34,931 nucleotides of DNA, taken from the NCBI GenBank assembly GCA_964058805.1, contig CAXKVV010001850.1, positions 1 to 34,931 on the forward strand, given 5' to 3'. Position 1 is the first letter of the stretch, and the number at the start of each line of letters is the position of its first letter. This document shows, one piece after another, positions 2,757 to 34,373 of the stretch. The notes under the pieces were generated by a model. It was not told the DNA's origin. It searched no databases and saw only the letters and a program-made list of their open reading frames with translations. The position numbers and the translations under genes are program-made. Source of the DNA: Schoenoplectus triqueter (Eukaryota > Streptophyta > Magnoliopsida > Poales > Cyperaceae).

Positions 2757-2759
<3 letters not shown>

Positions 2760-2765
2760 GTGAGG

Positions 2766-8110: not shown

Positions 8111-9355
8111 GAGTATTTTTTGCACAAGTAATGCAACACTCAGAATAGTCGGTCAACAACAGTTTGAACAAGAACATCATAACACCTGCCAAGAAGACAA
8201 CTGAGACTGCAACATCAACACAGTGAGTGTGTTGACTTTAAAAAAGAATATTATGATGTCTGAATAAGTGATATCATAATGCTGAGATTGATGATTCATC
8301 GATCATTAATGCATCAGCTACCTCCCAAACCTGATGGTGCACAGATATGGGATTGATCTGTTTGTATACCTATAATCTGACCAGATGAGAAGAGTTGAGC
8401 TGAACTGTCTACAAATTCACTCTCTAACAAATTTGTCTTAATATTAGACCAACAAAGTACTCCGAGTCTAATTTTGTGTACAAGGTAACCCTGAATCTAT
8501 GAATCGGCCAAGTGCCCAGAATTTATGATTTGGAAGATCAAGTAAGACAACTGTAGGGACTCCGTCCACTGTCTACTAATTATGTGTCTTGAACAACTAT
8601 TCATGACTTGACATGCTAGTGAGGCTAAACTGATCATGTTTATCCTCTAGTCTATGAGATCGAACTAACCTGTTTGTAAGTTCATCTCCCAAACCATAAG
8701 ATTGAACTAATCTGTTTGCAAGTTCATCTTCTAAACAGTGAAATTGAACTAATATGTTTGTAAGTTCATTCACTAACACACCTACCTCAATGTTGAACTA
8801 GTTTAGCACTTCATGTTTGACTTTGTGTGTGGAAGTGTTCCTAGGTTTATGAATCTGCTCAATGCTTAGAATTCATGATCTAGAAGATCAATAATATGTG
8901 CATGTGGGCCATATCCACTAATCTTCTGATTCACCAACCTTAAGATCAACTGGCTTAGCGCTTCAGGTTGTATTTTGTGTGATTGGTCATTGACTAGTTA
9001 TGATTGAATTGATTTGTTTATAAGTTCATCTTCTAGATCAATTAAGATTGAGTTGGTCTGTTTGTAGACTAATCTTTTATCCCTTCGTAGAGATTGATCT
9101 GATCTGTTTGTAAGATCACCTCTCAAAGCTGCCAATATTGAACTGATCTGTTTATAAGTTCATCTTTCTCTACCCTAAAATGAACTGATCTGTTTGTAAA
9201 TTTATTTCCTACCAACCTAATTTTACTACTCAAGTGAACTGATCTGTTAGTAAGTTCATCTACATCTCCGTTATATGAACTCAAGCGAACTGATCTGTGT
9301 GTAAGTTCATCCTCACCCCTATAATCTGTAACTAGCGAACTAATCTGAGTGTAAG
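8094..9355 (+). repeat. Hairpin-array module A, copy 1 (truncated)
   Basis: Matches the first two thirds of the A copy at 32708-34373. About a dozen short hairpins occur. Clear ones: GAGAT-c-GAACT (8656-8666) with AGTTC-ATCTC (8679-8688); AAGAT-t-GAACT (8698-8708) with AGTTC-ATCTT (8721-8730); GTGAA..T-t-GAACT (8738-8750) with AGTTC-A-TTCAC (8763-8773); GAT-t-GAATT (9002-9010) with AGTTC-ATC (9023-9030), extended by CTAG/CTAG; TGATCT (9095-9100) with AGATCA (9113-9118), extended by GAGA/TCTC. Loops are 12 nt, mostly GATCTGTTTGTA. A hairpin with a shorter loop is at 8621-8647 (GAGG-c-TAAAC with GTTTA-t-CCTC). The array breaks off at a hairpin where X2 begins. No ORF. Confidence 0.75.
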
Positions 9356-9579
9356 TGTTTACCCTTGAAAAATTTCAAGGACGAAGCAGCTGGACAATTA
9401 AGGACAAATATCAATTATCAGCAATAAATCATAAGAAAGAGAAAATGACAAGAAGAGAGGGTCCATTAGTTAGGAGAAGTCGTTGTAGAGCCCCGAAAAG
9501 AGTTTATTTGTCCCACAAGGAAATTCTGGACAAAGGGTCGAAGGTATAAAAGCCCTGCCACCTTCAATTCATTCGAGGC

Positions 9580-9628
9580 GGATGACTCTCAGGAGATTGA
9601 GGAGAGAAAATCTCCTGATGGGTCATCC
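9580..9628 (+). repeat. 50-nt hairpin near start of X2
   Basis: GGATGAC (9580-9586) and CAGGAGATT (9590-9598) pair with AATCTCCTG (9609-9617) and GTCATCC (9622-9628), leaving a 10-nt loop. Homologous hairpins with changed but still paired stems lie at 25780-25830 and 26017-26072. In X1 only the 5' arm remains (5108-5128). Confidence 0.7.
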
Positions 9629-9839
9629 ATTTGATTATTGTTCACTGACAAGTGGGTCTCACACCTCAGTGACAAATATTAAGGAAATCAAGATCAAACC
9701 CTAGAAATTAATTCTTAAAGTAAACCCTAAGAGCTAAAGCAATGCAATCCTTGTACAACAAAGGAATCGTGTTAATGCCAAGCTAGTATTTTGATACAGC
9801 CAATCATAAGAAATCTCAATGTGATTTTGCTTTCAAAGC

Positions 9840-10001
9840 TGACTAGGTGCCAAAGTTGTCAGCAACCACCTAATCAAGCCAAGGTTTGTGTCAATTGTTG
9901 ATAAGTATTAGTTATTGACCAAATCACTTTCATGAATATGGATTGAAAGTCAATTTTACAAGACTGATCAGGTGCCAATGTTATAAGCAACCATCTGATC
10001 A
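9840..10001 (+). repeat. Paired GGTG/CACC hairpin repeats of X2
   Basis: Two units about 125 bp apart. Unit 1: TGACTAGGTG (9840-9849) with CACCTAATCA (9867-9876), nine of ten positions paired. Unit 2: TGATCAGGTG (9965-9974) with CATCTGATCA (9992-10001), all ten paired with one wobble. Both share the loop core ccaa..agcaac. The X3 copy has the same two-unit arrangement (26277-26320, 26407-26443). Confidence 0.6.
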
Positions 10002-10439
10002 AGTCTAGATTTGTATTAATTATTAATAAGTAATCAGTTTTTGATCAAATCAAACCCTAATGAACATCAATATTGGTGTTTAATTGGGGGAGTTTCTGCA
10101 AGGAGAATTTTATTTGGCAGAGACACTGAGCTACAACTATGAGAAATTGAGATTTATTCAAAAGGAAAATAGAGTTTTCTTGACAAATAAATTTTTAATG
10201 CAAGGAGGCAGGGACAAAAATGGAATTTAAAATTACAATGGTGATAATCATGAATTTAGAGATTTATGGTGAAATTTTAATGATTTTTGGACAAATAAAA
10301 CTATCAGAATAATATTAGAGGGAAAAACAAATTAATCAAGGGCTGAGATTTGATCACAGGCCTCTTTGGGTACAACTTAGGGATAGAAACACTTCTGAGT
10401 GCAAAATTGGGGATTCAAACATACATACACATACAAAAT

Positions 10440-10700
10440 TAAAAGGAAAGAGAGGGTGTCACGTGACTACACCTCATTGGTTCACCTCAGCTATGTGGGC
10501 CTCACCACTATACTGACCTGATAAGTGGGTCCCACTAACATGCCACATGGCAAGCCATGACAGAGCCACCTCAGCACACAATGCCACATGGCAATACAGC
10601 AGCAACACACCTCAGCAGATTAAACTATACCTATTGCCACATGGTTGTACACCATTGGTGCAATTAAACAGTGCGGGCCCCACAGGTGACACATGATATT
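10440..10700. promoter_or_regulatory. Decayed G-box/CCAAT array of X2
   Basis: One CACGTG remains (10459-10464). Three further copies read TGCCACATGGCA or TGCCACATGG (near 10542, 10582 and 10636), that is CACGTG with a CpG-to-CpA change. They alternate with ATTGGTTCACCTCAG-like and GTGGGCCTC/GTGGGTCCC-like segments. The homologous array at 26911-27440 keeps four CACGTG copies. In X2, cytosine methylation and deamination probably eroded the sites. Confidence 0.5.
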
Positions 10701-11845
10701 CATTAACAGATGCCATCTCAACACAGATTAATACTATAACAGATGATTAACATAGTGATTATATAGGTGACCCTATCAGGTTATACCAAGTCAGATCAAT
10801 TAAACCTAAGCAGAGAGTTAACCAATCCATAATTGAATCTATGGGCTTAGACTCAGCTGCTTACACAAGGGGCCCATTTGTAAGGTTTATGAGTGTACAA
10901 CTCACACAAGCAATCATGCACCAAACTCATGCGCATATCTAAGCAGAGATTTAAATCAAAGAGAAAAAGGGGATGTGTATCTGGCTCATTTGCGCTGTGC
11001 CTCTGATGGTGGGCCCTACCTTGTAGTGGATCATGTGTGCTGAGCTCAGCCCCTCTGGAGCCTTCTCCTTCTCCTTTTCCCCTCCCTCTTTTCTTTCTTC
11101 TTCTCGCCAAGGCCGATGGCGCCATTAACGTCGATTGAGCTCTCTAAAGCTTGAGATAGCTTATACATAGGAGATAGCTTATACATAGGAGAAAAGGGGT
11201 AAATACTTAAAATTAAAAGGGGACAAATGAATGAAGAAATATAAGAAGATGATCACCTCGGGTAGTTAATGAGGGACTTCGATCCTTGTGTTCAAATTCA
11301 AAATTGATGACGCACATAGTCTCTAATCATCTAGGCGATGTTGTAAGTGAAAAAAAATAATTAAGCATCAAATTGAAGTAATTGGAATAAGGTGATGAAA
11401 TCGGGCAAATGGAGAAAAAATAAAACCTTACACTCTAAACTCAAATTGGCAATACTTGTAACTTCTGTATGCCCACATAATGCTGCTTAGGTGATTAGGA
11501 TTATCAATGGAATGAGGGGAGTATGATTTTGACTAAGGCTTGAAATCGGATGATCAAATTCTAAGCTTTGAAGGTGAGTTACAATGGCAGAGAGGAAAAA
11601 GGCGCCTTGGATGCATTGAAATGAGTATATATAGTATGCTGAGAAGGCTAGAAGGTTCTGTGGATGAAGAGAAGTGAGAAGAGGATTGAATCTGGTCAAC
11701 AGTCAAAGAATTGAGATTTGAATTCTTTCAAATGGGACCCACACCATAACAGAATGGCTAACACAAAATGAAGACCATGTTCATAGGCCAAGTCAGCTCA
11801 ATTGTTGGTGTTTGTATGGTATATGATCTTAATTCCCTTGTGCTC
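10701..11845. other. X2 upstream segment, no gene
   Basis: Contains a gggcccattt segment near 10871 and a tgggccctacc segment near 11012, a GC-richer CT/AG-rich patch (11040-11120), a short exact direct repeat (gagatagcttatacatagga, near 11153 and 11172) and a taggcgatgtt motif at about 11332. A TATATATA at 11626-11633 is not at the position of the promoters in the other copies. The 90-residue and 70-residue minus-strand ORFs here show no domain and are not conserved between copies. Confidence 0.45.
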
Positions 11846-12050
11846 CACTCCAATTGAGGCAAAGATACACACAATACACACACACAGAAGAGACCTATAC
11901 AAAGAAATTCAACTCCTAGTTTCAGCAGTGAGAAATAAAGAGTGAGTGCAAGGAAAGGAAGCAAAACAAGAAGAAGAATTTGTTAAATCGATTGATCTCA
12001 GTATTTCACTTGAGAACTTGATTCATTCACTCCAATTGCTTATCTAGAGG
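11846..12050 (+). promoter_or_regulatory. Weak promoter and candidate splice donor of X2
   Basis: CTCCAATTG near 11846-11854 and TATACAAA at 11896-11903 stand where X3 and X4 have CCAATCACAAT and TATATAAA. AGAG|GTAAGT at 12049/12050, 150 bp downstream, is a near-consensus 5' splice site and matches AG|GTAATT in the other copies. The TATA box is mutated relative to the others. No 3' splice site can be assigned by eye. Confidence 0.35.
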
Positions 12051-12469
12051 TAAGTTCTAAGTCCTGCCCTTTGTTGATTAGGAGTTAGCAAGCTCAATTT
12101 TTGAAGATTGAGGCGTAAAAATATAATCGTAATTGAATTTGTGAATATCAGTATAATAATGTGCCGCTTCTTATATTTCCTCAATTTCTATCAATTTTTC
12201 TTTGATTTTCTTCTTTCTTTCATAAACTGCAAGTTCAGCAAATATAAATTTTTATTTTCCTTGATGAATTTTACTTCAAAACTGATAAATAACGCTGTTA
12301 AATCAATTGATCTTAGTATTTCACTTGAGAACTTGATAACAGTGGAATTTCTTATCCAATTCTTCATCTTCAAGTTGTGATTATCTTATTTCTTGTTCAT
12401 ACTACATGTATTAAGGTCTATAGCCTCACTTGAAATCGATTGATCTCAGTATAAACTTGAGAACTCGAT
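11987..12469 (+). repeat. Leader hairpin repeats of X2 (TCTCA/TGAGA type)
   Basis: Three copies of a unit with two stems. Copy 1: ATCGA (11987-11991) and TCTCA (11996-12000) with TGAGA (12011-12015) and TTGAT (12018-12022). Copy 2: ATCAA and TCTTA (12302-12315) with TGAGA and TTGAT (12326-12337). Copy 3: ATCGA and TCTCA (12435-12448) with TGAGA and TCGAT (12458-12469). The outer stem is ATCAA/TTGAT in one, ATCGA/TCGAT in another and the wobble intermediate ATCGA/TTGAT in the third. They begin before the candidate splice donor. Confidence 0.6.
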
Positions 12470-13300
12470 TAATTTGAAGCTTATATACTATTATCGCGTC
12501 CTGTCAGTAATATTAAATTTTAATTTGAAAATTAAGAGAAATTGTAAGTGTATTTAAGCATATCTTGACTTAGATAAGTGTTATGAAGTTTGTTAAGTGC
12601 ATCGGTGTCAATACAAACCGATGAACAATAAGAATTTGGAGTAAATCATAACTGATACCAACCGATATTATCATGTCTCAGTGAATATTCTAAACAGTGG
12701 AGTTATGGATCAATTTGGGTCATTCTAATTGTGTTAAGATGCATTAACATACATGTGCAACATCAATTAAGTGTTCAATTGCTAGAAATAATAATCAATT
12801 GCATCAAATTTATGAGATTTGAGATTCAGTACCGAATGGTACCAATTTGCTCCACCTGACACTAGTGCACAACACGATTCACCGTATGGATCATCAATCG
12901 AGTGCCATAGAAAAAGTCCCCACGACAGGGCGAAGCCACAGGAGTTGTCGACACACAGCACGATTCACCGCAAGAGTTTTTTTATTATTCAGAAAGAGGT
13001 AGCCTTAGTCGCTGGCGACGCTACCAGCACGAATCTTGGAGGCTCCATTGACCGGGGAGTCAAAAAAACACAGCAACACGAATATTGAAGCGCCAACATG
13101 AATATTGAAGCACACATGTGAATCTTGAAAGAGATCGGACGTTTATAATAAGTTACCGTTTAAATAAAAATGATAAGCGGATCTTGGCCTCTCATCTCAT
13201 ATAACTTAATCTTAAAGCAGATCTAACAACCCAAATAGAATAAAGATTTAAATAGAAGACCAGTGCTAATTTTGATATAGATCCAATGGTCCACATCAAA
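12470..13300 (+). other. X2 segment with GGTACC motifs, no gene
   Basis: Contains gataccaaccgatattat near 12655 and cagtaccgaatggtaccaat near 12828, members of the CGGTACCAATCGGTAC family found in X1, X3 and X4. It also has a GC-richer stretch (12850-13090) with repeated cacgattcaccg and acgaat phrases and a ctggcgacgctacc motif. The 89-residue reading at 12819-13088 is composed of these repeats and I do not consider it a protein. Confidence 0.45.
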
Positions 13301-13530
13301 ACCCTATTTAACAGAAAAATAAAATAAATACACAATGATAATAAAAAATATACATATACATAAAAAATAAAAAAATAAAAAAAAATATATATAATGAGAT
13401 AATAATAAAAAAAGAATAATAAATGAAATAAAATATATATACAAAATAAAAAAGGAAAAAAGAAAGAAAGAACAAATAAAAAATATATAGTAAATATATA
13501 TAAACACAGAAATAAAAATATAGAAAAGTA

Positions 13531-13562
<32 letters not shown>

Positions 13563-13576
13563 ATTAAATTAAACAA

Positions 13577-13617
<41 letters not shown>

Positions 13618-13618
13618 G
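13301..13618. repeat. AT-rich tract with (AT)n and (AAT)n microsatellites
   Basis: Low-complexity A/T sequence with an AT run at 13530-13554 and an uninterrupted AAT/ATA run at about 13577-13616. It sits where the other X copies have their AT-rich terminal segment. Confidence 0.85.
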
Positions 13619-14045
13619 GAATCGTTATGATGATTCTCTAAATCGTTATACGGTTCACCAAAGCGTTGAACGTTTCATGAGACGTTGGCAACGCTTTGAC
13701 TATCCTCTGACAAGTCAATATATTCTGAGGAATCATTGTAATGATTATCTAAATCGTTATAAGGTTCATCAAATCATTATAACGCTTCACGGGACGTTAG
13801 CAACGGTTTGACCATTCTCTGACAAGTCAACATATGTTAAAGAATAGTTATAACGATTCCTTGAATCATTGTAATGATTTTCTAAAACGTTGAATGATAT
13901 ACAAAGCGTTAGCAACATTTTGACCTCTATTGACAAATTCTCTGACAAATCTGATATCTTCTGAAAGCGTTATAAAGGTTTGTGGAAGCGTTATAATGAT
14001 TCGTTGAAGTGTTGTAACAGTTTGTTGAATCGTTACACGATTTCT
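13619..14045. repeat. Array of degenerate AATCGTTATAACGATT palindromes
   Basis: About 18 short inverted repeats stand nearly end to end. Examples: GAATC/GATTC around 13619-13636, AATCATT-gt-AATGATT (twice, near 13731 and 13864), CGTT-ggc-AACG and CGTT-agc-AACG (near 13683 and 13795), GAAT.GTTATAAC.ATTC near 13843, and AATCG-ttaca-CGATT near 14029. Longer units (ctctgacaagtcaa, near 13706 and 13817) show a nested higher-order repeat of about 110 bp. The boxes resemble those at 2030-2300. Confidence 0.6.
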
Positions 14046-14245
14046 AGAATGTGAATGATCAACATGGTGATGATATACCTTGTTGACTTTTGATGAGACA
14101 TAACATGTATGATAATTTTTAATCTCATCCTCTAGTAACACTGTCTCAATGTTAAACAAGCCAAAATCTCTAAGTCTAATATTATGCACAAGATAACCCT
14201 GAATATGTGAACCCATGATTTAAAGGTGATTAAATATGCTCACAC

Positions 14246-15312
14246 GGAATGATGTGAAGTAACATAGTAATTTTGCATAAGTAATGCAATATTCATAATA
14301 GCTTATCAAGACAAGAACATCTCGACGTCCGTAGAAAAATGACCAAGACTATGATATTAACACAAGTAGAAGAACATCATGGTGTCCAAGGAGGTGATAT
14401 CATGATGGCCATGTCATGAACAAGTAATTCATGACTAGTCAAGCTAGTAAGACCAAACTAGTTTGTCGATAAGTTTGTTTTCTAGTTTAGAGGATTGAAT
14501 CGTTCTGTAGTAGATTCATCCTCAAACAGTGGAATGAACCATTCTGTAGTAGGTTCTTTCACTGACACACGCCTCAATGTCAAGCTATCTCAGCGCTTCA
14601 GGTTTGACTTTGTGTGCAGTTGTGTTCCTAGATTTATGGATCCGCTTAGTGCTTAGAATCCATGATCTAGAAGATCAGTGAGAAGTACCATGTGGGCCAT
14701 ATCCACTCTTCTCCTGATTCACCAACCTCAAGATCAACCGGCTTAGTGCTTCGAGTTGTATTTTGTGTGATTGGTTGTTGACTAGTTAAGATTGAATCGT
14801 TCTGTAGTAGGTTTATCTTCTAGATCAACTGAGGTCGAGTCGTTCTGTAGTAGACTCACCTCCCATCCCTCCGCAGAGATCAATCTGATTTGTAGTAAGG
14901 TTATCTCTCGGAGCAGTAAATATTGAACCGATCTGTAGTAGGTTCATCTTTTCACCCCATATCCCATTGGATCAACCTTTTGGTAGTTCCAGAATACTCC
15001 AGTGATTTCTGATCATAAGAGCATGTGACCACTTGACTATTATTTAGCTATATTATTTTTTGCCCCCTTTCAAGATCTAGAGGTTCCTCGATGTTAATAG
15101 CCCAGGGTAATTAATGGTGGGGGCTTGCGCCCATCGAAATCTTTAAGTACTCATAATCACTAAAAACCCCCTAAATGTACATCCTAATAAGTCTAAGATG
15201 GCGGGACCAATCGGTGTTAAACAAATATTCGTTTAGGAGGGATCTCTGTGGCCTTCTTCTGCATCTCATCGCCACCAGCGGCGGTGCGGAGCGCGCGAAA
15301 AAAGGTCGCACA
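14246..15312 (+). repeat. Hairpin-array module B, copy 1
   Basis: Follows a mutated junction (14223-14245). Seven main hairpins: CAAACT/AGTTTG (14454-14477); GAGGAT-t-GAATC with GATTC-ATCCTC (14490-14523); GTGGAA-t-GAACC with GGTTC-TTTCAC (14529-14562); CTAG-tt-AAGAT-t-GAATC with GGTTT-ATCTT-CTAG (14782-14823); GAGGT-c-GAGTC with GACTC-ACCTC (14831-14862); GAGAT-c-AATCT with AGGTT-ATCTC (14876-14907); GAACC/GGTTC (14925-14945). The typical loop is 11 nt, GTTCTGTAGTA or GATCTGTAGTA, against 12 nt in module A. The module ends with a GGGGGCTTGCGCCC hairpin (near 15120), a CTGCA..TGCGG hairpin (15259-15289) and TCGCACA. Confidence 0.8.
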
Positions 15313-15973
15313 GTAAGTTCATCTATATATGTCTTTTATCTAAATTCAAGTTAACTGATCTGTGTGTAAGTTCATCTTTTATTGCATTTGTATCTGCTTT
15401 GAATTGAACTGCTCTGTTTATAAATTCATTTCCTTTATCTAAACTGATATGTTTGTAAGTTCATTTTCACCTATTTCTAAACCTCGAACTGATTTGTTTG
15501 TAAGTTCGTATGTTAGCACTCTACGTAAGTTCAATCGATCTATTTGTAGATTTAATTTACACTGTACCCTAAAGATAGAACTGATATGTTGGTCAGTTTA
15601 TCTTATGCCATTCCAGCCTTACTGGACTGATCTGATTGTAAGTCTAGGGTGTTTCGTAGTGACTCTGATCACTTGAACACTTGACCACTCGACCACTTAA
15701 CTATCATTTAGCTATAGTATTTACTTCCCCTTTCGAGATCCAGAGGTGCAACGAGATTAATAGCCCAGGGTAATTAACGGTGGGGGCTTGCGCCCATCGG
15801 AATCTACAAGAACTCATAATTACTGGAAAACCCCTAAATGTGTATCTTAATAGGTTTGAACGGTAGAATTAACCGATGTTAAATAAAAACATACTTAGGA
15901 GGGATCTTCGTGTCCTTCTTCCACATCTCATCGCCTCGCAGCGGTGAGGAGCGCGTGAAAAAAGGGTCACACA
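15313..15973 (+). repeat. Hairpin-array module A, copy 2 (5'-truncated)
   Basis: Begins in the middle of a hairpin (only the AGTTC arm, 15316-15320) and aligns with 33815-34373. It contains GAACT-type hairpins, for example CGAACT (15485-15490) with AGTTCG (15503-15508) and GGACT/AGTCT near 15623-15645. The end contains the GGGGGCTTGCGCCC hairpin (near 15782) and gagcgcgtgaaaaaagggtcacaca. TCACACA (15967-15973) directly precedes the element leader, so this is the likely 3' end of the 5' LTR-like block. Confidence 0.7.
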
Positions 15974-23434: not shown

Positions 23435-23645
23435 TAATTAACAGTGTTCATCAGTTTAATCAGTATTTTTTTTGGCATTTCTTTCTCTAGAACTAAGCTT
23501 AAAACATTCAATTCATGTTTGTCAAGTAGTCAATTGAACTTTCTTTCTTGTTCTTGTTGTTTCCCTTCAAAAATTTAATTATTTCTCTTATCTCTTTTTG
23601 TTTTCTTCCTTGAAGGACATCAATCAATATCAATTGACTAAATTC

Positions 23646-25551: not shown

Positions 25552-25705
25552 TGTTTACCCTTGGAAAATCTCAAAGATAAGCAGCTGAGTAAATGAAAAT
25601 AAATATGAATTGTTGATAATAAAACATAAGAAGGAGGAAAGAGAAAGGGCAAGAGAAAGGGCCCACTGATCAGAAGAGGTCACTGCCTAACTCCGGAACA
25701 AATCA

Positions 25706-26110
25706 ATTAATCCCACAAGGAAATGTCAAGGTGAGAGACAGAGATATAAATACTCCACCACCTCCTGCTCATTCGAGGTGGCTGACCCTCAGGAGATTCC
25801 AAAGAGAGAAAATCTCCTGATGGGTCAGCCATATGATCACATTTTTTCTGATAAGTGGGACCCACATGACAGTCACTTGCAAGCAGCTCTGATAGCTTAA
25901 CACTAGCTTATCTACTAAACCTAATCAATCTGGAACAAAGCTAAGCAATAGTCCCACGAGGAAATTTTAGGCAAAAGCCAGAGGTATAAAATCCATGTCA
26001 TCTTCTGTTCATTCGAGATGGATGACCCTCAAGAGATTCAGGAGAGGGAGATCTCTAGAGGGGTCATCCATCTAATCATTTTCCACTGACAAGTGGACCC
26101 CACACCTCAG
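25706..26110 (+). repeat. 240-bp tandem duplication with 50-nt hairpins
   Basis: 25706-25900 and 25946-26110 are homologous. Hairpin a: GGCTGACCC (25780-25788) and CAGGAGATT (25790-25798) with AATCTCCTG (25811-25819) and GGGTCAGCC (25822-25830). Hairpin b: GATGGATGACCC (26017-26028) and AGAGAT (26032-26037) with ATCTCT (26051-26056) and GGGTCATCCATC (26061-26072). The C-G pair of a (GGCTGAC/GTCAGCC) is an A-T pair in b (GGATGAC/GTCATCC). Stem lengths are 18 bp in both. Confidence 0.75.
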
Positions 26111-26276
26111 TAACAAACATCAAAGGAGTCAAGATTAAACCCTAAGGATTTACCCTCAGAGTAAACCCTAAGGACTGAAGTAGTATAATCTCTATACAAC
26201 TAGAATTGTGTCAATGCCAAGCTAGTATTCTGATACAACTAATCATGAGAAATTTCAAATGTGATTTTGCTTTCAA

Positions 26277-26443
26277 GGCTGACCTGGTGCCAAAGCTATG
26301 AGCAACCACCTAACCATGCTTTGATTTGTGTCAATTACTGATAAGTAGTCAGCTCTTTGACCAAATCACCCTCATGTTAAGGGATTGAAAGTCAATTTCA
26401 CAAGACTGATCAGGTGCCAAAGCTGGGAGCAACCATCTGATCA
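26277..26443 (+). repeat. GGTG/CACC hairpin repeats of X3
   Basis: Unit 2 is TGATCAGGTG (26407-26416) with CATCTGATCA (26434-26443), all ten positions paired (one wobble). Unit 1 near 26279-26316 keeps only the GGTG/CACC core firmly. Same pair of units as in X2. Confidence 0.55.
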
Positions 26444-26910
26444 AGTCTAAATTTGTATCAATTGTTGACAAGTAATCAATTATTGATTAAATCAAAACCT
26501 AATAAATATCAATACATATCTAATTGGTATTTAGTTAGGGTAGTTTCTGTAAGAGAGAGATATTTAGCAGAGACACTGAGTTACAATTGAAATCTGGGAT
26601 TAATTCAGAGAAAAGAACAGGGTTTCCTTGATAAAAGAATTTTTAATTCAGAGAGACAGGGGTAAAAATGGAATTAAAAATTACAGGAATGATCATCATG
26701 AATTTAGGGATTTTTGGTGAAATTTTCATGATTTTTTGGATAAGTAGAGTTATTAAAATAAATTCAGGGAAGATAAAATAGATTAAAAGGAAAGATCAGG
26801 GGCTGAGATTCAATCAAGGGTTAATCTGGGTGCAACTTGGAGATAGATACACTGCTGGGTGCAACTCGGGGACAAGAAAGAGTGCAGATTCAGAAATCCA
26901 GTAACCATAC

Positions 26911-27500
26911 TAATGCCACGTGGCAGCTCTCTATTGGGCCAGCTCAGCCGTGAAGAAGCCACGTGGCACTCCCTTATTGGTCCACCTCAGATGGGTAGGC
27001 CCCACCACTGGGCTGACCTGACAAATGGGCCCCACTAGCATGCCACGTGGCAGGCTACCAGTTCGCCATGTCACACTATCAGAACCATGTGGCTTATTTT
27101 CACTGGTCCACATCGGCAACCACTCCACCAAACAGAGACAAGTGGCAGCACCTAGTTAAGCCATGTCAACAAGGATAAGCCATGTGGCATTTATCTACTG
27201 GTCCACATCAGCAGCCGTCTCACTATTTGAGATACAACAACTAGACATGTGGCAGCATGCCATGAAGCCACCTCAACAACTGAGTGCCACATGGAACTTC
27301 CTTATTGGTCCACCTCACCAATGTGGGCCCCATCATGCCACAAGATGACTGATAAGTGGGCCCCACTTGGTGCCACGTGGCAGGCACAGATTGGTGCCAT
27401 GTCATTACATAGGTATTACATGTGGCTTCTTCTGGTTGGTACAAGTCAGCATGAGGTGGCACACATGGCACTACTAGGCAGAGCCACATCACTCATCACT
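26911..27500. promoter_or_regulatory. G-box / CCAAT / GGGCCCCAC array of X3
   Basis: GCCACGTGGC occurs intact at 26915-26924, 26958-26967 and 27042-27051, with GCCACGTGGCA again at 27372-27382. Decayed forms (CCATGTGGC, CATGTGGC, GCCACATGG) are near 27084, 27178, 27245, 27285 and 27419. Between them are (T)ATTGGTCCACCTCAG-like segments, whose ATTGG is an inverted CCAAT, and GGGCCCCAC segments (27028, 27324, 27357) that match TCP-type sites. CACGTG is bound by plant bZIP and bHLH factors. The array lies about 1.2-1.7 kb before the TATA box and could be an enhancer. Expression is not shown by sequence. Confidence 0.55.
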
Positions 27501-28590
27501 AACAGATCATTGGTGTTAAGGGTTTGTTTATTAAGCAATCAACCAATCAGATCTTGCCATTTCAGCCTATTAACTCTAATCATTATACTAATCGACTGTC
27601 AACAAGGATCTATAGACCCAGACTTGTAAATCTTACAAATGGGGCCCAGCAGTCAGAAACCCAAGCAGAATCGCATAACTAAGCTATGAACCAAGTCCAT
27701 TCAATTTGTTCATTCAAATCAATACAGCCTATTCAAAATTGAGGATAAACAAGGGATGAACCTGGAGCATGCTTCCCCTGGCGCTTTGGGGCACGTGTGC
27801 TTAGCCTATCCAGTCCAGTCGAAGACTTTCCCCGCTCTCTCTTCTTCTTCTCCTCGCGCGCGATCACTGGCTTCTTCCCATGGCGTCTCACCATTGCAAG
27901 AGGCTTCGAGACAAGTAGCAAGCATCAATGCTTCGATCAGGGAAGTGAGAACAAAAGGATAATAGTGAAGGAAGAGTTGAACAACAAGATTATCACGATT
28001 TGAGTTGAAGCAGCGATGGTGTACTTCTAAAGAGATACGATTGAGTGCTTCAAACACCAAATTGAGCACAGAGGGAGCTTGCTTGTGCTTAGGCGACGCT
28101 AATTGATGAGTAATTACAAGACAATTGAGTGAGAATAGAGTTCAAGCGCGAAGAATCATCAAAGGCAGTAGCAAAGAGGCAGGCTTGATAGATGCTTCAA
28201 ACATCAAATTGTGTGGTCAAGGAGTTTATCTAGGCTAAGGCGATGCTGATTAGCATGGATTGAAGGAGAAGTTAGACCAGAAGGAGTGAATTGCGTCAAG
28301 AGAAGAAATGAGGCAGAAGCACGATTTTGAAATTAAGTGAAACACAGCGCAATTGAAAGTGAGGAGGTACTGGAATTGATGAAGAGAAGCTTAAATACGA
28401 TCTAGTGATGAAAGGGGGGGCCCACTCGTCGATTAGAAGATGTGTAGGATTGAAGTTGAGAGTGTTGGCACAGTCAACATATAACAGAAATAACCGATTG
28501 GTCAAAGGCGATCTTGAAACAAGCACAACTGCATCCTAGCCGTTAATTGAAGTGAGATAGAGGGTGGAGATTCATTTGAGTAGGCAATCC
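27501..28590. other. X3 segment upstream of the promoter, no gene
   Basis: Has a ggggcccagc segment (27641), a GC-richer CT-rich patch (27770-27890) homologous in position to 11040-11120 of X2, and AGGCGACGCT (28089) and AGGCGATGCT (28239) within two related units of about 150 bp. ORFs here on both strands are short, overlap, and have no domain. Confidence 0.45.
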
Positions 28591-28603
28591 GACCCAACAG
28601 TAA

Positions 28604-28770
28604 TCAACCAATCACAATCAAGTGAATTAGTTGGTCGAAGCCTATATAAACAGAGGGAGATAATAGTAAAAAAAAAGGAGGATCCAAACAGCAACAATTG
28701 AAGAACATACTATAGTAGCTGAGAAGAGAGAGAGAGAAGAGATCAATTGGTGTCCTATTCAAAGAAAAGG
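28604..28770 (+). promoter_or_regulatory. Promoter and candidate splice donor of X3
   Basis: AACCAATCACAATCAAG near 28606-28622, TATATAAA at 28643-28650, a GA-rich stretch, and AAAG|GTAATT at 28769/28770. Best preserved of the four copies. A transcript from here would pass through the hairpin units, the AT-rich end and the B and A arrays before reaching gag at 34682, unless spliced. Confidence 0.55.
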
Positions 28771-28995
28771 TAATTGGATTTTGTATTCATCAATCAAGAT
28801 CGAGTCTTTGTGTTTCTCTCCTTTGAAATTCTTATGATTTGAGGCACCTAATCTGTATCTATGTAATGATAGAAAAATTCTTGCTTGATTTTGCTGCCAT
28901 AATTTCCCTTCTTTTATAGATTTTCTCTTTTTCCTCTCTGATTTCATCATTTCCTTCTATTAAAATTAGCAATTAGATTATGTAATTGATATCCA

Positions 28996-29365
28996 GTGAG
29001 CCACTGACCCGAGTACAAGGTGCTTGATGAGCCTTTAGGCCTGGATTAATCATTAACATGAAGAATTTACAAAAAAGATTACTGTTTCTTATTATTGATT
29101 CATAATTTTTCCATTAATCGCTTTTCCTTCTTTAGCTCTGATTGGACAAGGTTTGATAATTAGAGGCTTATTATCTGTTAATTACTTTGATTAGATGATT
29201 ATGATTAGTAAGGATGATGTAAAGTGCATAAACCTTATAACAAAAGGTATTAACTCGATAAGATCAGTATATTGTTTATTTCTGGCACAATGATCAATCG
29301 AATTCAACAAGAATCTCAGCGAGCCACTGGCCCCAGTTAAGACTGGGAGAGCCTTTAGGCCTGAG
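28996..29365 (+). repeat. GAGCCACTGGCC hairpin units of X3 (two)
   Basis: Unit 1: CGAGTAC (29010-29016) with GTGCTTG (29020-29026), paired at all seven positions by three wobbles. Unit 2: CCCAGT (29332-29337) with ACTGGG (29342-29347), perfect. Flanks are as in X4 and the units are about 325 bp apart. Neither stem sequence occurs in X4. Confidence 0.7.
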
Positions 29366-29419
29366 AGTTGTCTATCGAGTGTACAAGTTCAATAAGCATC
29401 TTGGATTGGAACGGAATGG

Positions 29420-29830
29420 AAGTCGGTACCAGTCGATACCGCATACCTCCAATGCACGAGTGCTTCAGCACAATCAATAGTGAGCAATAAACCCTCTATT
29501 CATTTCAGATCATATCCATATACCAAAACGATGCTTATTGAGTTTGTAATCATCAGTAACATCAATCAAATCTGTCGAATTTGGTAAAAAGCAACTCGGT
29601 ACCAATCGGTACTGTGTATTGACAAATGGCGAAGTGGTTCAACACTACTACTAGCATGAGAGAAGCCCTCTGTTCACTTCAAATCATAATGGCATGCCAA
29701 AACGATGCTTGACAAGCTCACAATTGTTAAGAATGTCGAACAATTCAATCGAATTTGGCAAAGAATCCAACTCGGTACCAATTCTGATTAATACACCTCA
29801 GTCGGTACCATCGCGCAGCTTCTACTACCG
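29420..29830 (+). repeat. GGTACC motif repeats of X3
   Basis: cggtaccagtcgataccgc near 29423 (CGGTA pairs with TACCG), cggtaccaatcggtactgtg near 29601, cggtaccaattctg near 29774 and cggtaccatcgcg near 29804. Spacing is about 30-180 bp. A GCAC/GTGC hairpin lies near 29454-29463. Confidence 0.5.
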
Positions 29831-30179
29831 TATGGATCTTCGATCAGATACTTTAGAAAGATTCTACATACTGAGGCGATGCTAATACACCAGTCTGATC
29901 GGAGAAGGAGAGCTCCGGTCGCCGGGAACACCATGTTGCACTAATCCTAAAGCATCGGAAAGTCAGAGGCTGAGAGGATCTCTTTTGCACGATTACTGAA
30001 GCGTTCACCAATCTTAAAGATCCATTAGTGGATGAGATCCATCAAGAGTTCAGGAAATTAATATAAGAATAGATCTAGGCCTTAGATCCGTCAAGCACGC
30101 ATCTGAGTTAAATCCAACGGCCCAAGTATAATCAAACATTTAAATAAAACTTTGTACAAATCTCAGAACAATCCAATGG

Positions 30180-31624
30180 CCCAGATTAAAAAGCAGTATT
30201 TGAACTGCGGCCCAGCTGAGAATGGGCCTAATTGAATGAAAATAATGAAATAGGCCCAGTAGCAGAAACATTAAAAGAAAATTAATTTGGCCCAATTCAT
30301 TAAGCCCAACTATTAATTAATAACAGAAAATCAAAAATAAATAGTAAATAAATCATTTTAAAATGTTCCTAAACTCCAAATTAACTCAAATTTGTTTTTA
30401 AAGATTCTTTGTTTTTCATAGTATTTTTTTTTATAAGAATATTTCAGTTTTAAAAATATTATTATATTAAAACAATTTAAAAGCAAAAGACATTATATGC
30501 ATTGATATATTTGACTTAGCTTTAACTTATCATTTTAAATATCATAAAAATTCCAAAAATTCAAATAAAACCCTGAATTATAATTAAATATATTTTAATG
30601 ATTTTTCAAGTGATTTTCATAAAATAATAATAACAATAATAATATTCAATAAGAAATAAGAAATAATAAGATAAATTCTAATTATTACAAAAGAGAATAA
30701 ATAATAATAGTAAATAAGTATTATTTTAGTTTTTCTATAAAAATAAAAATAAATAATCATAATAATAAATAATAAATATACCTTATTTTATTTTAGAATC
30801 TAAATTATATAATAAAACAAGTTATACTGTTTGGTTATTTCTAAAATCAAATAAAAATATAATAATAATAGAATAAATCTTATTATTATTTTTAGTTTAA
30901 AAATACTAATAATAATATAATAAAAGTTCAATCATTCCTAATATTTTGTAATAAGAAAAATAATAATAAAGAATATAATAATTTCATTCTTTTAGCTATT
31001 ATAAGAATTCTAAAATCCAAATAATAATAATAATAATGATAATAAAACAAAATCTTATTCTAAAAATTCTAGAATTGAAATAAAAAAATATAAAATTCAT
31101 TCTTTACCATTTTTCTACAAATAATAAATAAAAATAAAAAAAAAATAAAAACTATCATAAATAGAATAAAAATAATAATAATTCCTTTAGTTATTGTAAA
31201 TTCTAAAAATCAAAATAAAAATAGCTAATTCATCTTTTATTTTGTAAATAATTTTCTATAAAAATAAATAGAATTTAAAAATAATAAAAACTATAATAAT
31301 AAAATCCTATTACTTTGGCTATTATAAAAATCCTAAAAATTCAAATAAAATCATAGCCAACTTGTTATTCTTGTAAGTAATTTTCTACAAAAAACAAATA
31401 GAATTTAGAAATAATAAAAAACAAAATTCTATTACTTTAGCTATCATAAAATCTCAAAAATCTAAATAAAATTCTATATAATAGCTAATCTATTTTTCTA
31501 TTATTTTTGTAAGTAATCTTCTACAGAAATAAATAGAGTTTAAAAATAAAAAGATAAACCCACATTTATAATAGAGATAATAATGAAAAAATCAATAAAA
31601 ATGTAATAATCCTTTTACATTTTA
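30180..31624. repeat. GGCCCA cluster and long AT-rich end of X3
   Basis: GGCCCA-type copies near 30178, 30209, 30225, 30253, 30289 and 30304, then about 1.2 kb of A/T sequence dominated by aataat and aaaataaa. Within it a block of the form 'attctaaaaatcaaataaaa...gtaatttttctacaaaaataaatagaatttaaaaat' is repeated about four to five times (near 31010, 31190, 31320, 31440). X1 and X4 have only one such block, so the AT end has expanded in X3. Confidence 0.6.
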
Positions 31625-31648
31625 GAGGTGAATAAATATGCTCACACA
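31625..31648 (+). repeat. Module junction, X3 to B
   Basis: aggtgaataaatatgctcacaca, followed by aggggtgtagagtaacacagtg. Same junction as at 8070 and 25507, here leading into module B. Confidence 0.6.
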
Positions 31649-32707
31649 AGGGGTGTAGAGTAACACAGTGATCTTGCACAAGTAATGCAACATTTAGAAC
31701 AATTAGTCGGGACAAGAACATCTTGACGCTCGTTGAAGAATAACCAAGGCTACGACATCAACATGAAGAGATATGTCGACTCTAAGAGAGAAGAACATTA
31801 CGATGTCCGAGAGGAGTGATATCTTAATGACTCGGTGTCATGAACAAGTAATTCATGGCTAGTTGAGCTAGTAAGACTGAACTCATCCGTCGATAAGTTT
31901 GTCTTCTGGTTCATCTCCCGAAATTGTGAGATTGAATCGTTCTGTAGTAGATTCATCCACAAAACAGTGAATGTGAACCGTTCTGTAGTAGATTCCTTCA
32001 CTAACACACGCCTCAATGTCAAGCTGGCTTAGTGCTTCAGGTTTGACTTTGTGCGCAGTTGTGTTCCTAGGTTTATGAATCGTCTTAGTGCTTGAAATTC
32101 ATGATCTAGAAGATCAATGAGAAGAAACACGTGGGCCAAATCCACCCTTCTCCTAATTCACCAACCTCAAGATCAACCGGTTTAGTGCTTCGAGTTGTAT
32201 TTTATGTGATTGGTTGTTGACTAGTTAAGATTGAACCGTTCTGGAGTAGGTTTATCTTCTAGATCAACTGAGGTTGAGTCGTTCTGTAGTAGACTCACCT
32301 CGAGCCCCTCTGAAGAGATTAATCTGATTTGTAGTAAGGTTATCTCTCGAGGCGGTAAAGACTGAACCGATCTGTAGTAGGTTCGTCTTTCACTGGATTA
32401 ACCTTTTTTTGTAAATACAGACGACCACTTGACCATCATTTAACTATATTATTTGCTTCTCTCTTTTAAAGATCCAGAGGTATCTCGAGGTTAACAGCCC
32501 AGGATAATTAACGGTGGGGGCTTGCGCCCACCGGAATCTATAAGAACTCACAATCACTAAAAAACCCCCCTAAATGTGCATTCAAATTGGTCTAAACGGT
32601 AGAATTAACCGACATTTAACAGATGCACGCTTGGGAGGGATCTTCGTGTCCTTCTTCCGCATCCCATCGCCAGAGGCGGTGCGGAGCGCGCGAAAAAGGG
32701 TCGCACA
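31649..32707 (+). repeat. Hairpin-array module B, copy 2
   Basis: Aligns with 14246-15312 throughout. Main hairpins: AAGAC-t-GAACT with AGTTT-GTCTT (31873-31905); GAT-t-GAATC with GATTC-ATC, outer GTG/CAC (31926-31960); GTGAA..GAACC with GATTC-c-TTCAC (31967-32001); CTAG-tt-AAGAT-t-GAACC with GGTTT-ATCTT-CTAG (32221-32262); GAGGT-t-GAGTC with GACTC-ACCTC (32270-32301); GAGAT-t-AATCT with AGGTT-ATCTC (32315-32346); AAGAC-t-GAACC with GGTTC-GTCTT (32358-32389). The last has AATAT/ATCTT as outer stem in copy 1. The end has CGGTGGG (32512-32518) with CCCACCG (32527-32533), CCGCA..CGCC with GGCG..TGCGG (32657-32684), and TCGCACA (32701-32707). Confidence 0.8.
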
Positions 32708-34373
32708 AGGGTATTTTTACACAAGTAATGCAACACTCAGAACAATCAGTCAACAACAGTTAGGACAAGAACATCCTGACACCTGTCAAGAAGACAACTG
32801 AGACTACAACATCAACATAGTGAGTGTGTTGACTTTAAAGAAGAACATTATGATGTCTGAAGAGGTGATATCATGATGCTGAGATTGATGATTTATTGAT
32901 CATCAATGCTCCAGCTGCCTCCCAAGGCCGGTGGTGCACAGATGAGTTGGGTTGAACTGTCTAGAAACTCATTCTTTAACAAACATGTCTCAATATTAGA
33001 CCAGCTAAGTACTCCGAGTCTAATTTTATGTACAAGGTAATCCTAAATCTATGAATCGGCCAAGTGCTTAGAATTCATGGTTTAGAAGATCAAGTAAGAC
33101 AACTGTAAGGACTTTGTCCACTGTATACTGACTATGTGTCTTAAATAACTGTTCATGACTTGACATGCTAGTGACATTAAATTGATTTATTTGTAAATTT
33201 ATCTTCTAGTCCATGAGATCGAACTGACCTGTTTGTAAGTTCATCTCCTTAGTCACAAGATTGAACTAATCTATTTGTAAGTTCATCTGTTAAACAGTGA
33301 AATTGAACTGATTTGTTTATAGGTTCATTCACTAACACACTTGCCTCAGTGTTGAACTGGCTTAGCACTTCATATTTAACTTTGTGTGTAGAAGTGTTCT
33401 TAGGTTTATGAATCCACTCAGTGTTTGAAATTCATGATCTAGAAGATCAGTAAGATGTACATGTGGGCCATATCCACTAATCTTCTAATTCACTAACCTC
33501 AAAATCAACTGGTTTAGCGCTTCAGGTTATATTTTGTGTGATTGGTCATTGACTAGTTAAGATTGAACTGATTTATTTATAAGTTCATCTTCTAGATCAA
33601 TTAAGATTGAGTCGATCTATTTGTAGACTCATCTTCTATCTCTTCGTAGAGGTTGATCTGATCTGTTTGTAAGATCGTCTCTCGGAGCTACCAAGATTGA
33701 ACTAATCTATTTATAAGTTCATCTTTTTCTATCCTAAAATGAACTGATATGTTTGTAAGTTCATTTGCTACCAACCTACTTTCACTATTCTGTATCAAGA
33801 GAACTGATATGTTAGTAAGTTCATCTATATCTCTTTTATCTGTAATTTGTGAACTAATATGTGTGTAAGTTCATATATATCTCTTTTATCTGAACTCAAG
33901 TGAATTGATCTGTGTTTAAGTTCATCTTTTATTGCATTTGCATCTGCTTTGAATTGAACTGCTATGTTTGTAAGTTCATTTCTTCTAACTGAACTGATCT
34001 GTTTGTAAGTTCATTTTCACTTGTTTCTAAACTCTGAACTGATCTGTTGGTAAGTTCGTCTGTCAACACTCTATGTAAGTTGAATTGATCTTTTTGTAGA
34101 TTCAATTCACAATGTACCCTAAAGATAGAACTGATCTGTTAGTAAATTCATCTTCTTTCATTCCTGCCTCACTGGACTAATCTGATTGTAAGTCCAAGGT
34201 GTTTCGTAGTGATTCCGATCACTTGACCACTTGACCACTTGATTATCCTTTAGTTATAGTATGTGCTTCCCCTTTCAAGATCCAGAGTGAAAGTGGACAC
34301 TAGAGCTGCTCTGTCCTTTTTTCGCATACCATCACCCCGCAGGGTTGAGGAGCGCACGAAAAAGGATCACACA
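32708..34373 (+). repeat. Hairpin-array module A, copy 3 (most complete)
   Basis: About 19 hairpins. Examples: ATGAGTT (32942-32948) with AACTCAT (32966-32972); TAAATT with AATTTA (33178-33201); GAGAT-c-GAACT with AGTTC-ATCTC (33215-33247); CTAG-tt-AAGAT-t-GAACT with AGTTC-ATCTT-CTAG (33553-33595); AAGAT-t-GAGTC with GACTC-ATCTT (33603-33635); GATCT with AGATC (33655-33676); AAGAT-t-GAACT with AGTTC-ATCTT (33693-33725); TTGAATT with GATTCAA (34080-34105); AAGAT-a-GAACT with AATTC-ATCTT (34122-34154); TGGACT with AGTCCA (34173-34196). Loops are 12 nt, mostly GATCTGTTTGTA. It ends with TCCTTTTTTCG..CGAAAAAGGA around 34313-34365 and TCACACA (34367-34373). Unlike the A copy at 15313 it lacks the GGGGGCTTGCGCCC hairpin. 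Confidence 0.8.

What the first reader, a model, noticed from the sequence alone, without database searches (positions are those of the whole stretch)
8621..34200. Arrays of hairpins whose stems covary around a conserved loop and a conserved bulge (modules A and B)
In five module copies about 35 short repeats share a loop (GATCTGTTTGTA or GTTCTGTAGTA). They also share a one-base 5' bulge between an inner and an outer stem. The stem sequences differ widely: inner GAACT/AGTTC, GAATC/GATTC, GAGTC/GACTC, GATCT/AGATC, AATCT/AGGTT, GGACT/AGTCC; outer GAGAT/ATCTC, AAGAT/ATCTT, GAGGAT/ATCCTC, GTGGAA/TTTCAC, GAGGT/ACCTC, AAGAC/GTCTT. Changes on one arm are matched on the other, often through G-U pairs. 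This is what selection for a folded RNA or DNA would produce. I know of no described LTR feature like it. The alternative is arm-to-arm correction by template switching.
Basis: partly seen in the sequence, partly recalled or inferred. Interest (0 to 1): 0.9.

Follow-up and report, generated by a model that had tools for sequence, protein, structure and literature searches.

The report
Arrays of RNA hairpins in retrotransposon LTRs
A family of large LTR retrotransposons, probably of a plant, carries arrays of small hairpins whose stems change in matched pairs while the loop stays much the same, which suggests that its RNA is read as a row of repeated binding sites.

Summary
The window has 46 hairpin matches (E<0.01, all on the + strand, all in five arrays). 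On 23 of them, 8 of 10 stem pairs change on both sides (37 cells against 11.4 shuffled). The family is genome-wide: exact GATCTGTTTGTA 620+619 times, reversed control 10.

Across 67 array copies covariation exceeds a phylogeny-preserving null (13.5 against 7.8, sd 1.2, maximum 10.9 of 300); 6 of 49 testable pairs pass a 5% false-discovery rate. Watson-Crick pairs decay to G-U more often than to A-C, although spacers predict about 1:1. This points to the sense RNA rather than to DNA or arm-to-arm correction. Loops change less on ancestral branches, relative to terminal ones, than spacers (p=0.01).

The arrays lie near the 3' end of LTRs of about 6-7 kb in probably Ty3-type elements, by inference in a transcribed leader. 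Two of five window arrays sit in nested solo LTRs. A second, unrelated covarying RNA occurs 2-3 times in the LTRs in hand.

Best reading: multivalent RNA recognition sites, perhaps for packaging or export of the element's RNA. That function is inferred. No Rfam match at gathering threshold; my searches showed no report of such arrays.

The parts
8656..9353 (+). Hairpin array A, copy 1, 5' part (about 11 hairpins)
   Evidence: Loop scan; ten R1 model matches at E<0.01 in 8656-9314
15348..15645 (+). Hairpin array A, copy 1, 3' part, split from the 5' part by a nested solo LTR
   Evidence: target-site duplication checked
14449..14951 (+). Hairpin array B, copy 1 (6 clear hairpins, one weak)
31873..32390 (+). 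Hairpin array B, copy 2 (6 clear hairpins, one weak)
33173..34203 (+). Hairpin array A, copy 2 (about 18 hairpins)
9356..15312 (+). Solo LTR carrying array B copy 1, TGTTTACCC...GGTCGCACA, inserted in an A-type array; duplication GTAAG at 9351-9355 and 15313-15317
   Evidence: Read, letters checked; LTR end fixed by differing flanks in other loci
25552..32707 (+). Solo LTR carrying array B copy 2; duplication AGGGT at 25547-25551 and 32708-32712
34364..34373 (+). Putative 3' end of the A-type LTR (GGATCACACA), followed by the gag-side leader
   Evidence: Homology to GGGTCGCACA
17883..18317 (+). Decayed gag-like stretch
   Evidence: Pfam Retrotrans_gag E=0.0024, 18.5 bits, below the 24.1 cut-off
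19443..20036 (+). Decayed Ty3-type protease-like stretch (read with X at stops)
   Evidence: Pfam Peptidase_A2B E=0.0054, 16.8 bits, below the 21.2 cut-off
28641..28651 (+). TATA-like box CCTATATAAAC in the second solo LTR, about 3.2 kb upstream of array B; a 5' splice-like AG|GTAATT lies 127 nt on
23625..23717 (+). Second structured RNA motif (GAGCCACTGGCC - hairpin - TGAGCYTTTAGGCC)
23945..24034 (+). Second structured RNA motif, further copy
24274..24363 (+). Second structured RNA motif, further copy
28974..29066 (+). Second structured RNA motif (L085:1915-2007)
29297..29386 (+). Second structured RNA motif (L085:2238-2327)

Best explanation
The repeats are RNA hairpins of the sense transcript of a large, probably Ty3-type LTR retrotransposon. 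They lie in the 3' part of its LTR, so by inference in the long leader between the start of transcription and gag (and again near the 3' end). Each has a 5-bp inner stem, and at best a one-base 5' bulge and an outer stem, under an 11-12-nt loop (about GNUCUGUN(N)GUA). Stem sequence is free as long as it pairs; the loop is kept. This is the layout of a protein-binding hairpin, repeated for avidity (3 to 24 per fetched locus). I think the most likely reader is the element's own Gag or a host RNA-binding protein, and the most likely use is selection of the element's genomic RNA for packaging or nuclear export. Shown by computation: hairpins, covariation above a phylogenetic null, sense-strand bias, constraint on loop and pairing, place in the LTR. 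Inferred: transcription of the region, importance of the bulge, a protein reader, packaging or export.
For: Covariation: window alone, 8 of 10 pairs with both-sided changes, 37 cells against 11.4 shuffled. Across copies: sum 13.48 against null 7.78, sd 1.16, max 10.92 of 300; 6 of 49 testable pairs at BH 5%. Strand: WC pairs become G-U rather than A-C, 23:8 on internal and 72:45 on terminal branches (p=0.011, 0.016), and 113:65 in the A-only alignment (p=0.0004; not independent, shares copies); spacer rates predict 34.8:33.6 and 101:104. Selection: inner-stem changes keep pairing 17:4 on internal, 43:60 on terminal branches (p=0.0014). Loop: internal:terminal ratio of changes 0.18 against 0.32 in spacers (p=0.0098); A-only 0.25 against 0.35 (p=0.031), inner stems 0.18 against 0.35 (p=0.0007). 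Place: the LTR end GGGTCGCACA was found in 24 of 29 B loci; two share a leader, two are alike, the other 20 are followed by sequences no more than 43% alike; gag-side homology follows the LTR end on the same strand in L043 and L051, of 14 loci printed.
Against: No transcript, probing or binding data. The kept/broken contrast is not significant in the A-only alignment (inner 15:10 against 78:85, p=0.29; outer 3:7 against 30:32, p=0.33) nor for outer stems in the joint one (12:11 against 36:65, p=0.16). G-U:A-C subsets: joint inner 13:3 (p=0.02) and 39:29 (p=0.27), outer 9:5 and 34:16 (p=0.42, 0.015); A-only internal 12:7 and 3:4, not significant. Raw stem substitutions show no strand bias (C>T plus A>G against G>A plus T>C: 29:28 internal, 81:74 terminal); the bias appears only given the pair state, since G-U pairs are often restored. 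Slide -3 slightly exceeds its null. RNAalifold on 33 representatives recovers 15 of 71 proposed pairs in sense and 20 of 71 in antisense; both senses fold far better than column shuffles. The bulge column is not more constrained than spacers (p=0.80, 0.65). Recombination between copies could inflate parsimony counts; copies are best matches of two searches, not a random sample.
Confidence: 0.45

Rival explanations
1. Polyadenylation control: the loops expose UUUGUA/UGUA, known plant far-upstream poly(A) elements, and the arrays set where the LTR transcript ends.
For: 193 of 430 12-nt loops hold TTTGTA and 152 of 194 11-nt loops hold TGTA. UUUGUA is cited as a plant 3'-end upstream element (Rothnie 1994, title seen in the reference list of PMC1805453). 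The B arrays end some 320-360 nt before the LTR end, the A array about 170 nt.
Against: Loop base 9 varies (A in 97 of 430), which destroys TTTGTA there; base 9 was free in the loop scan, so its freedom is partly by choice, but the array alignments also show it changing as often on internal as on terminal branches. Only 9 of 194 11-nt loops hold TTTGTA. It does not call for covarying stems. Of AATAAA, ATTAAA and AATTAA only AATTAA occurs between the B arrays and the LTR end, and none after array A.
Confidence: 0.15
2. The hairpins act at the DNA level: cruciforms or inverted-repeat sites for a DNA-binding protein, as proposed for palindromes in other LTRs.
For: Inverted repeats in LTRs are often cis-regulatory (PMC10760457, passages); the arrays are in LTRs; antisense folds nearly as well as sense in RNAalifold.
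Against: A dimeric site would keep the half-sites and free the spacer; here half-sites change and the spacer (loop) is kept. G-U over A-C excess has a strand, DNA does not. In the window the array lies downstream of the TATA-like box, not upstream.
Confidence: 0.12
3. Arm-to-arm correction: template switching during DNA synthesis or reverse transcription copies one arm into the other, with no selection.
For: It makes matched arms; direct double changes on one branch occur (about 4 internal, 4 terminal in inner stems).
Against: Most internal inner-stem departures are single changes to G-U (13.2), A-C is rarer (3.4), and terminal copies keep many unrepaired mismatches. It gives no reason for loop constraint.
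Confidence: 0.08
4. The hairpins are substrates or by-products of small-RNA silencing and persist without use to the element.
For: Structured LTR regions attract small RNAs in maize (PMC10760457, passages).
Against: Stems of 5+5 bp with a bulge are far shorter than miRNA-like precursors (inference); silencing alone would favour loss of pairing, not its upkeep.
Confidence: 0.05

Closest known systems
Sirevirus (Ty1/copia) LTR palindromes, CACCGGACNNNGTCCGGTG (PMC2829016 and PMC10760457, passages read)
   Same: Clusters of short inverted repeats in plant LTRs, able to fold
   Different: There the stem sequence itself is conserved and lies upstream of the TATA box; here the loop is conserved, stems covary, arrays lie far downstream in the LTR, and the element is probably Ty3-type
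Retrozymes, plant non-autonomous retrotransposons with hammerhead ribozymes (PMC4918200, listing and start of abstract only)
   Same: A plant retroelement with conserved structured RNA
   Different: Self-cleaving ribozyme there; here no ribozyme match in Rfam and a repeated short hairpin
Retroviral and Ty1 5' leader packaging/dimerisation stem-loops (PMC5454406, abstract and passages)
   Same: Structured RNA between transcription start and gag in an LTR element
   Different: Few unique stem-loops there; here one hairpin type repeated in arrays; no packaging data here
Proposed dispersed degenerate packaging signals of satellite tobacco necrosis virus, stem-loops with AxxA loop (PMC6475782, passages)
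   Same: Short stem-loops with a fixed loop motif
   Different: Unique sites in a viral genome, other loop; here tandem arrays
Iron-responsive element hairpin (recalled, no call)
   Same: 5-bp upper stem, single 5' bulge, conserved loop, covarying stems
   Different: Loop is not CAGUGN, bulge is mostly U, and it is in a retroelement in arrays
MPMV constitutive transport element (recalled; listings only)
   Same: The second motif here is a pseudo-twofold-symmetric pair of internal loops
   Different: Different sequence; no export data

Membership tests
Conserved structural RNA | Covariation above a phylogeny-preserving null | tested here: met
   6 of 49 pairs at BH 5%; sum above all 300 null sets; own code, not R-scape
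Conserved structural RNA | Member of a described RNA family | tested here: not met
   No Rfam 15 match at gathering threshold in the window; only chance-level hits (E 2.2-3.9) at E<=5 in two window stretches and none at E<=1 in five loci
LTR retrotransposon (Ty3 type) | LTR with TG...CA ends and 5-bp target duplication | tested here: met
   Two solo LTRs, GTAAG and AGGGT duplications
LTR retrotransposon (Ty3 type) | gag and pol domains | tested here: inconclusive
   gag and Ty3 protease hits below curated cut-offs; reverse transcriptase and integrase not looked for
Sirevirus LTR palindromes | Conserved CGG-CCG palindrome upstream of the TATA box | tested here: not met
   Stems vary and do not hold it, loop conserved; array about 3.2 kb downstream of a TATA-like box in the window
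Iron-responsive element | CAGUGN hexaloop and C bulge | tested here: not met
   Loop GNUCUGUN(N)GUA; bulge U in 215, C in 39, A in 25 of 279; IRE definition recalled
Retroelement packaging signal | Needed for incorporation of RNA into particles | not testable with these tools
   No assay
Retroelement packaging signal | Lies in the transcribed leader | tested here: inconclusive
   Downstream of a TATA-like box and upstream of gag by position; no transcript seen

The most novel reading that the evidence does not exclude
The long LTR leader of these elements is a purpose-built RNA platform: tandem arrays of bulged hairpins as multivalent docking sites, plus two or three pseudo-twofold-symmetric structured elements upstream, together taking the place of the single packaging and export signals of retroviruses. 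Array length, which differs between copies, would set the strength.
Probability: 0.25. Interest if true: 0.88.

Novelty: new variant of a known kind. Interest (0 to 1): 0.74.

Why it matters
How plant LTR retrotransposons select, export and package their RNA is, as far as I know, little studied. Here many natural variants of one hairpin, from active ancestors and decayed copies, show which positions matter (loop, pairing) and which do not. That makes the RNA-level requirement of such an element directly testable. Noncoding LTR sequence, usually passed over as filler, would then carry repeated functional RNA.

Tried and rejected
Chance: rejected by shuffles. Coding repeat: spacings such as 37, 44, 46 nt are often not multiples of 3 (inference). 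Known RNA family: no Rfam match at gathering threshold, chance-level or none below it. Templated correction of loop base 4 from base 9: rejected, A4 is at least as common with A9 (23 of 97) or G9 (7 of 29) as with T9 (45 of 292). RNAalifold on the whole array alignment: little use, as hairpin arms are alike and can pair across slots. First Pfam scans of long read-through stretches found nothing; shorter pieces gave weak gag and protease hits in 2 of 9. A genome search for gag domains gave 150 scored matches that I did not link to this family. Identifying the species was not attempted; that it is a plant is my inference from the sequence.

Literature: ten searches, of which I saw the listings (cut) and passages of five papers, showed no report of covarying hairpin arrays with a conserved loop in LTRs. 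The library lacks most subscription papers, and the Sirevirus paper of 2016 is not held, so I know it only through PMC10760457.

Rows dropped: two duplicate modules of 72 before alignment, then 3 of 70 with gaps or poor homology; L018 as a duplicate of L017; loci overlapping the window (L009, L021, L039) and L001-L008 from hairpin counts (L001-L006 lie partly within L069). Slot 33226 has no B counterpart. For the second motif, 14 of 15 instances were aligned (the L050 one left out). The structure model was run on 41 loci and the window, not on all that I held; at E<=0.01 it lists fewer matches than the sequence-only model (539 against 571).
Full report
What is there. A plain scan for the two loops, not conditioned on pairing, gives 49 hits on the + strand for the first loop (up to 3 mismatches), of which 40 have at least 4 of 5 inner pairs (G-U counted), against 2 of 22 on the - strand; for the second loop (up to 2 mismatches) 12 of 12 against 0 of 4. 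A few of the 40 lie outside the arrays (for example 3050, 5300, 29135) and look like chance. I aligned 23 window hairpins, with no gap except for loop length, and counted pairs: 96.1% of 230 cells pair (84.1% when partners are shuffled, 30-49% when slid), 8 of 10 pairs have changes on both sides, in 37 cells (11.4 shuffled). A covariance model of these 23 finds 46 matches at E<0.01 in the window, all + strand and all in the arrays; 23 of them were not in the model. In 41 other loci it finds 539 matches at E<=0.01; a sequence-only model finds 571, with lower scores, the best 41 against 57 bits.

Genome-wide family. The window is one contig of an unnamed 82-Mb, 2086-contig assembly. GATCTGTTTGTA occurs 620 + 619 times (10 for the reversed control) and GTTCTGTAGTA 369 + 372 times (76 in control). 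DNA searches with array A and array B each scored 40 candidates of about 680 and returned 66 and 71 matching pieces; the longer A copies are 71-89% identical to the query, the longer B copies 94-97%. A and B align as one family with matching slots. By loop scan, with at least 4 inner pairs, fetched loci hold 3 to 24 hairpins each and the window 36; loci are cut at fixed flanks, so these are not exact array lengths.

Covariation against a phylogenetic null. I built a FastTree tree of 67 array copies from 258 columns outside the hairpins, reconstructed each column by parsimony, and drew null columns by throwing the same number and kind of changes on branches weighted by their total change (in the spirit of R-scape, own code). 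The summed covariation of the proposed pairs is 13.48; the null has mean 7.78, sd 1.16, maximum 10.92 of 300. Slid partners: -2, -1, +1, +2, +3 lie inside their nulls, -3 just above (7.58, maximum 7.35). Singly, 6 of 49 testable pairs pass BH 5% with 1000 nulls and 4 of 49 with 300. Examples, homologous slots: GATCT/AGATC in A is AATCT/AGGTT and AACCT/AGGTT in B-type arrays; AAGAT/ATCTT is GAGGT/ACCTC; GAACT/AGTTC with AAGAT/ATCTT is GAACC/GGTTC with AAGAC/GTCTT.

RNA or DNA, selection or correction. The two arms are reverse complements, so mutation alone should turn a Watson-Crick pair into G-T and into A-C about equally often; only a sense-strand RNA tells them apart. Observed G-U:A-C is 23:8 on internal (p=0.011) and 72:45 on terminal branches (p=0.016); by stem it is 13:3 and 39:29 (inner; p=0.02, 0.27), 9:5 and 34:16 (outer; p=0.42, 0.015). 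The A-only alignment with 18 slots, which shares copies with the first, gives 12:7 and 71:44 in inner stems (p=0.36, 0.015), 3:4 and 28:9 in outer stems (p=1, 0.003); 113:65 in all before rounding (p=0.0004). Spacer substitution rates predict 34.8:33.6 and 101:104. Raw stem substitutions have no strand bias (29:28 internal, 81:74 terminal); the bias appears once the state of the pair is taken into account, as G-U pairs are often restored to Watson-Crick pairs (about 10 internal and 20 terminal events in inner stems). Inner-stem changes keep pairing 17:4 on internal and 43:60 on terminal branches (p=0.0014), as expected if active ancestors were under selection and dead copies are not; outer stems show no clear difference (12:11, 36:65), and the A-only alignment does not repeat the contrast (inner 15:10 against 78:85, p=0.29; outer 3:7 against 30:32, p=0.33). 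In the A-only alignment inner-stem columns do change less on internal branches, relative to terminal ones, than spacers (0.18 against 0.35, p=0.0007); in the joint alignment they do not differ clearly (0.25 against 0.32, p=0.26). Correction between arms would leave few mismatches and would not prefer G-U. I take sense-RNA selection as likely (about 0.85).

The loop and the bulge. Loop columns change less on internal branches relative to terminal ones than spacer columns, in the joint alignment (0.18 against 0.32, p=0.0098) and in the A-only one (0.25 against 0.35, p=0.031). In the joint alignment G1, G6 and G10 change 1, 1 and 2.2 times on internal but 23, 36 and 26 times on terminal branches, and T7, T11 and A12 never on internal ones; in the A-only one the same G's change 8, 13.5 and 4 against 35, 47.5 and 41 times, which for G6 is close to the spacer ratio. 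The bulge column is not more constrained than spacers (p=0.80 and 0.65). Of 650 hairpins with at least 4 inner pairs, 279 have a 4-bp outer helix with a one-base 5' bulge, against 182 with shuffled partners; the base is mostly T (215 of 279), often exchangeable with its neighbour. Outer stems are weak or absent in many slots of array A.

Place in the element. I found the LTR end GGGTCGCACA (one base allowed to vary at two sites) in 24 of 29 B loci. After it L043 and L057 share a leader (95% alike), L054 and L059 are alike, and the other 20 sequences are no more than 43% alike. Gag-side homology follows on the same strand in L043 and L051, of 14 loci printed. The LTR begins TGTTTACCCTTG (213 + 214 genome hits, 10 in control). 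In the window two B-type solo LTRs of 5957 and 7156 bp, with target duplications GTAAG and AGGGT, are nested in A-type LTRs and account for the split arrays. Six same-strand pairs of LTR starts that I picked from the first hundred listed (contigs C13, C15, C22 twice, C79 twice) lie 19.1-21.8 kb apart, and on C22 the arrays lie about 6.2 kb into the LTR. A TATA-like box lies 3.2 kb upstream of array B in the window; its relatives lie 2.9-4.1 kb upstream of arrays on three further contigs that I matched by eye (C164, C992, C1572), while on C896, C1819 and C2067 the listed match is not upstream of the listed array. In three of four window sites near such a box an AG|GTAATT follows within about 130-240 nt, and in one (L087) of five other loci: a possible leader intron, weakly supported. 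The gag and Ty3-protease matches are below curated cut-offs. I infer, and have not shown, that the arrays are transcribed as leader RNA.

A second structured RNA in the same LTR. GAGCCACTGGCC occurs 141 + 142 times in the genome and 0 times reversed. In 15 instances in hand it starts an irregular hairpin: an outer stem, GCC/GGC and GGC/GCC helices around kept internal loops, and an apical stem that varies, such as CCAATCAC/GTGATTGG, CCAATTAT/ATAATTGG, CCAAGCAC/GTGCTTGG, CCCAGC/GCTGGG; RNAfold gives this shape for most but not all of the 15. In 7 + 7 aligned sequences, 7 of 26 and 6 of 29 pairs change on both sides; covariation scores are 0.260 and 0.144 against shuffled 0.155 and 0.099 (0 of 500 each). 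The number of pair types is not raised in the second set (287 of 500), and the outermost helices pair in only 75% and 56% of cells. Seven sequences per set are few, and these counts have no phylogenetic null. Both strands of the core read GAGCC-N3/4-GGC, a pseudo-twofold symmetry that recalls the MPMV transport element (recalled, not tested). Rfam gives only chance-level or no hits. In the window it lies between the TATA-like box and the array, so one LTR carries two unrelated covarying RNA elements. That makes an RNA role for the leader more likely.

What it does. A fixed loop over free stems, in many copies, is the layout of a protein-binding hairpin. The leader of LTR elements holds packaging, dimerisation and reverse-transcription signals (Ty1: PMC5454406, abstract and passages). 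I therefore think genomic-RNA packaging or export by Gag or a host protein most likely (about 0.45 for the whole statement), with poly(A) control through UUUGUA loops the best rival (0.15).

Novelty. The listings of ten searches of open-access text, and passages of five papers, showed no account of such arrays. Sirevirus LTR palindromes are the nearest plant case, with conserved stems upstream of the TATA box and CACCGGACNNNGTCCGGTG as the commonest motif; one maize survey says Ty3 elements generally lack an obvious peak of miRNA-like structure (PMC10760457, passages). Retrozymes carry a ribozyme (PMC4918200, listing). I score this as a new variant of a known kind, cis-acting structured RNA of LTR elements, with a new anatomy.

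Noticed in passing
window 23625-24363 and 28974-29386; L028, L050, L057, L086-L088: A second conserved RNA structure (GAGCCACTGGCC - covarying hairpin - TGAGCCTTTAGGCC inside a partly covarying outer stem), 2-3 copies in the LTRs in hand, 283 exact core hits in the genome and none reversed.
   Followed up: partly
loop base 4 of array A slots, loci L009-L037: Recurrent C-to-A change at loop base 4: 147 per 1000 C-branches on terminal branches against 14.5 in spacers, with no C-to-G; A occurs there in at least one copy in all 18 slots; independent of loop base 9, commoner after A2 than T2 and with a T-A closing pair. ATCTG outside the loops also shows some, so a sequence-context effect, a modified RNA base misread by reverse transcriptase, or a DNA lesion are all open.
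   Followed up: partly
window 9356-15312 and 25552-32707: Two solo LTRs nested in A-type LTRs with clean 5-bp target duplications; a hairpin array was the target site at 9351.
   Followed up: yes
window 28768, 23432, 6238: AG|GTAATT, a 5' splice-like site, about 130-200 nt after TATA-like boxes; absent after the fourth box (11620) and in four of five other loci. A spliced leader would make the arrays intronic.
   Followed up: no
L057, just after the LTR end: GGATC then TGGCACGCCCGGTGGGAC: a candidate tRNA primer-binding site beginning with TGG; tRNA not identified.
   Followed up: no
L064, L065, L067 and others: Extra tandem copies of a roughly 175-bp block of array B, so arrays grow by duplication of several hairpins at once.
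   Followed up: no
L036, L054, L059: Arrays on both strands within a few kb: inverted neighbouring insertions.
   Followed up: no
window 2759-3130: A 372-bp imperfect inverted repeat (72% identity with its own reverse complement), possibly a MITE.
   Followed up: no
LTR 3' ends, e.g. window 32650-32707: GC-rich hairpin-like stretch CCGCATCCCATCGCC..GGCGGTGCGG just before the LTR end.
   Followed up: no
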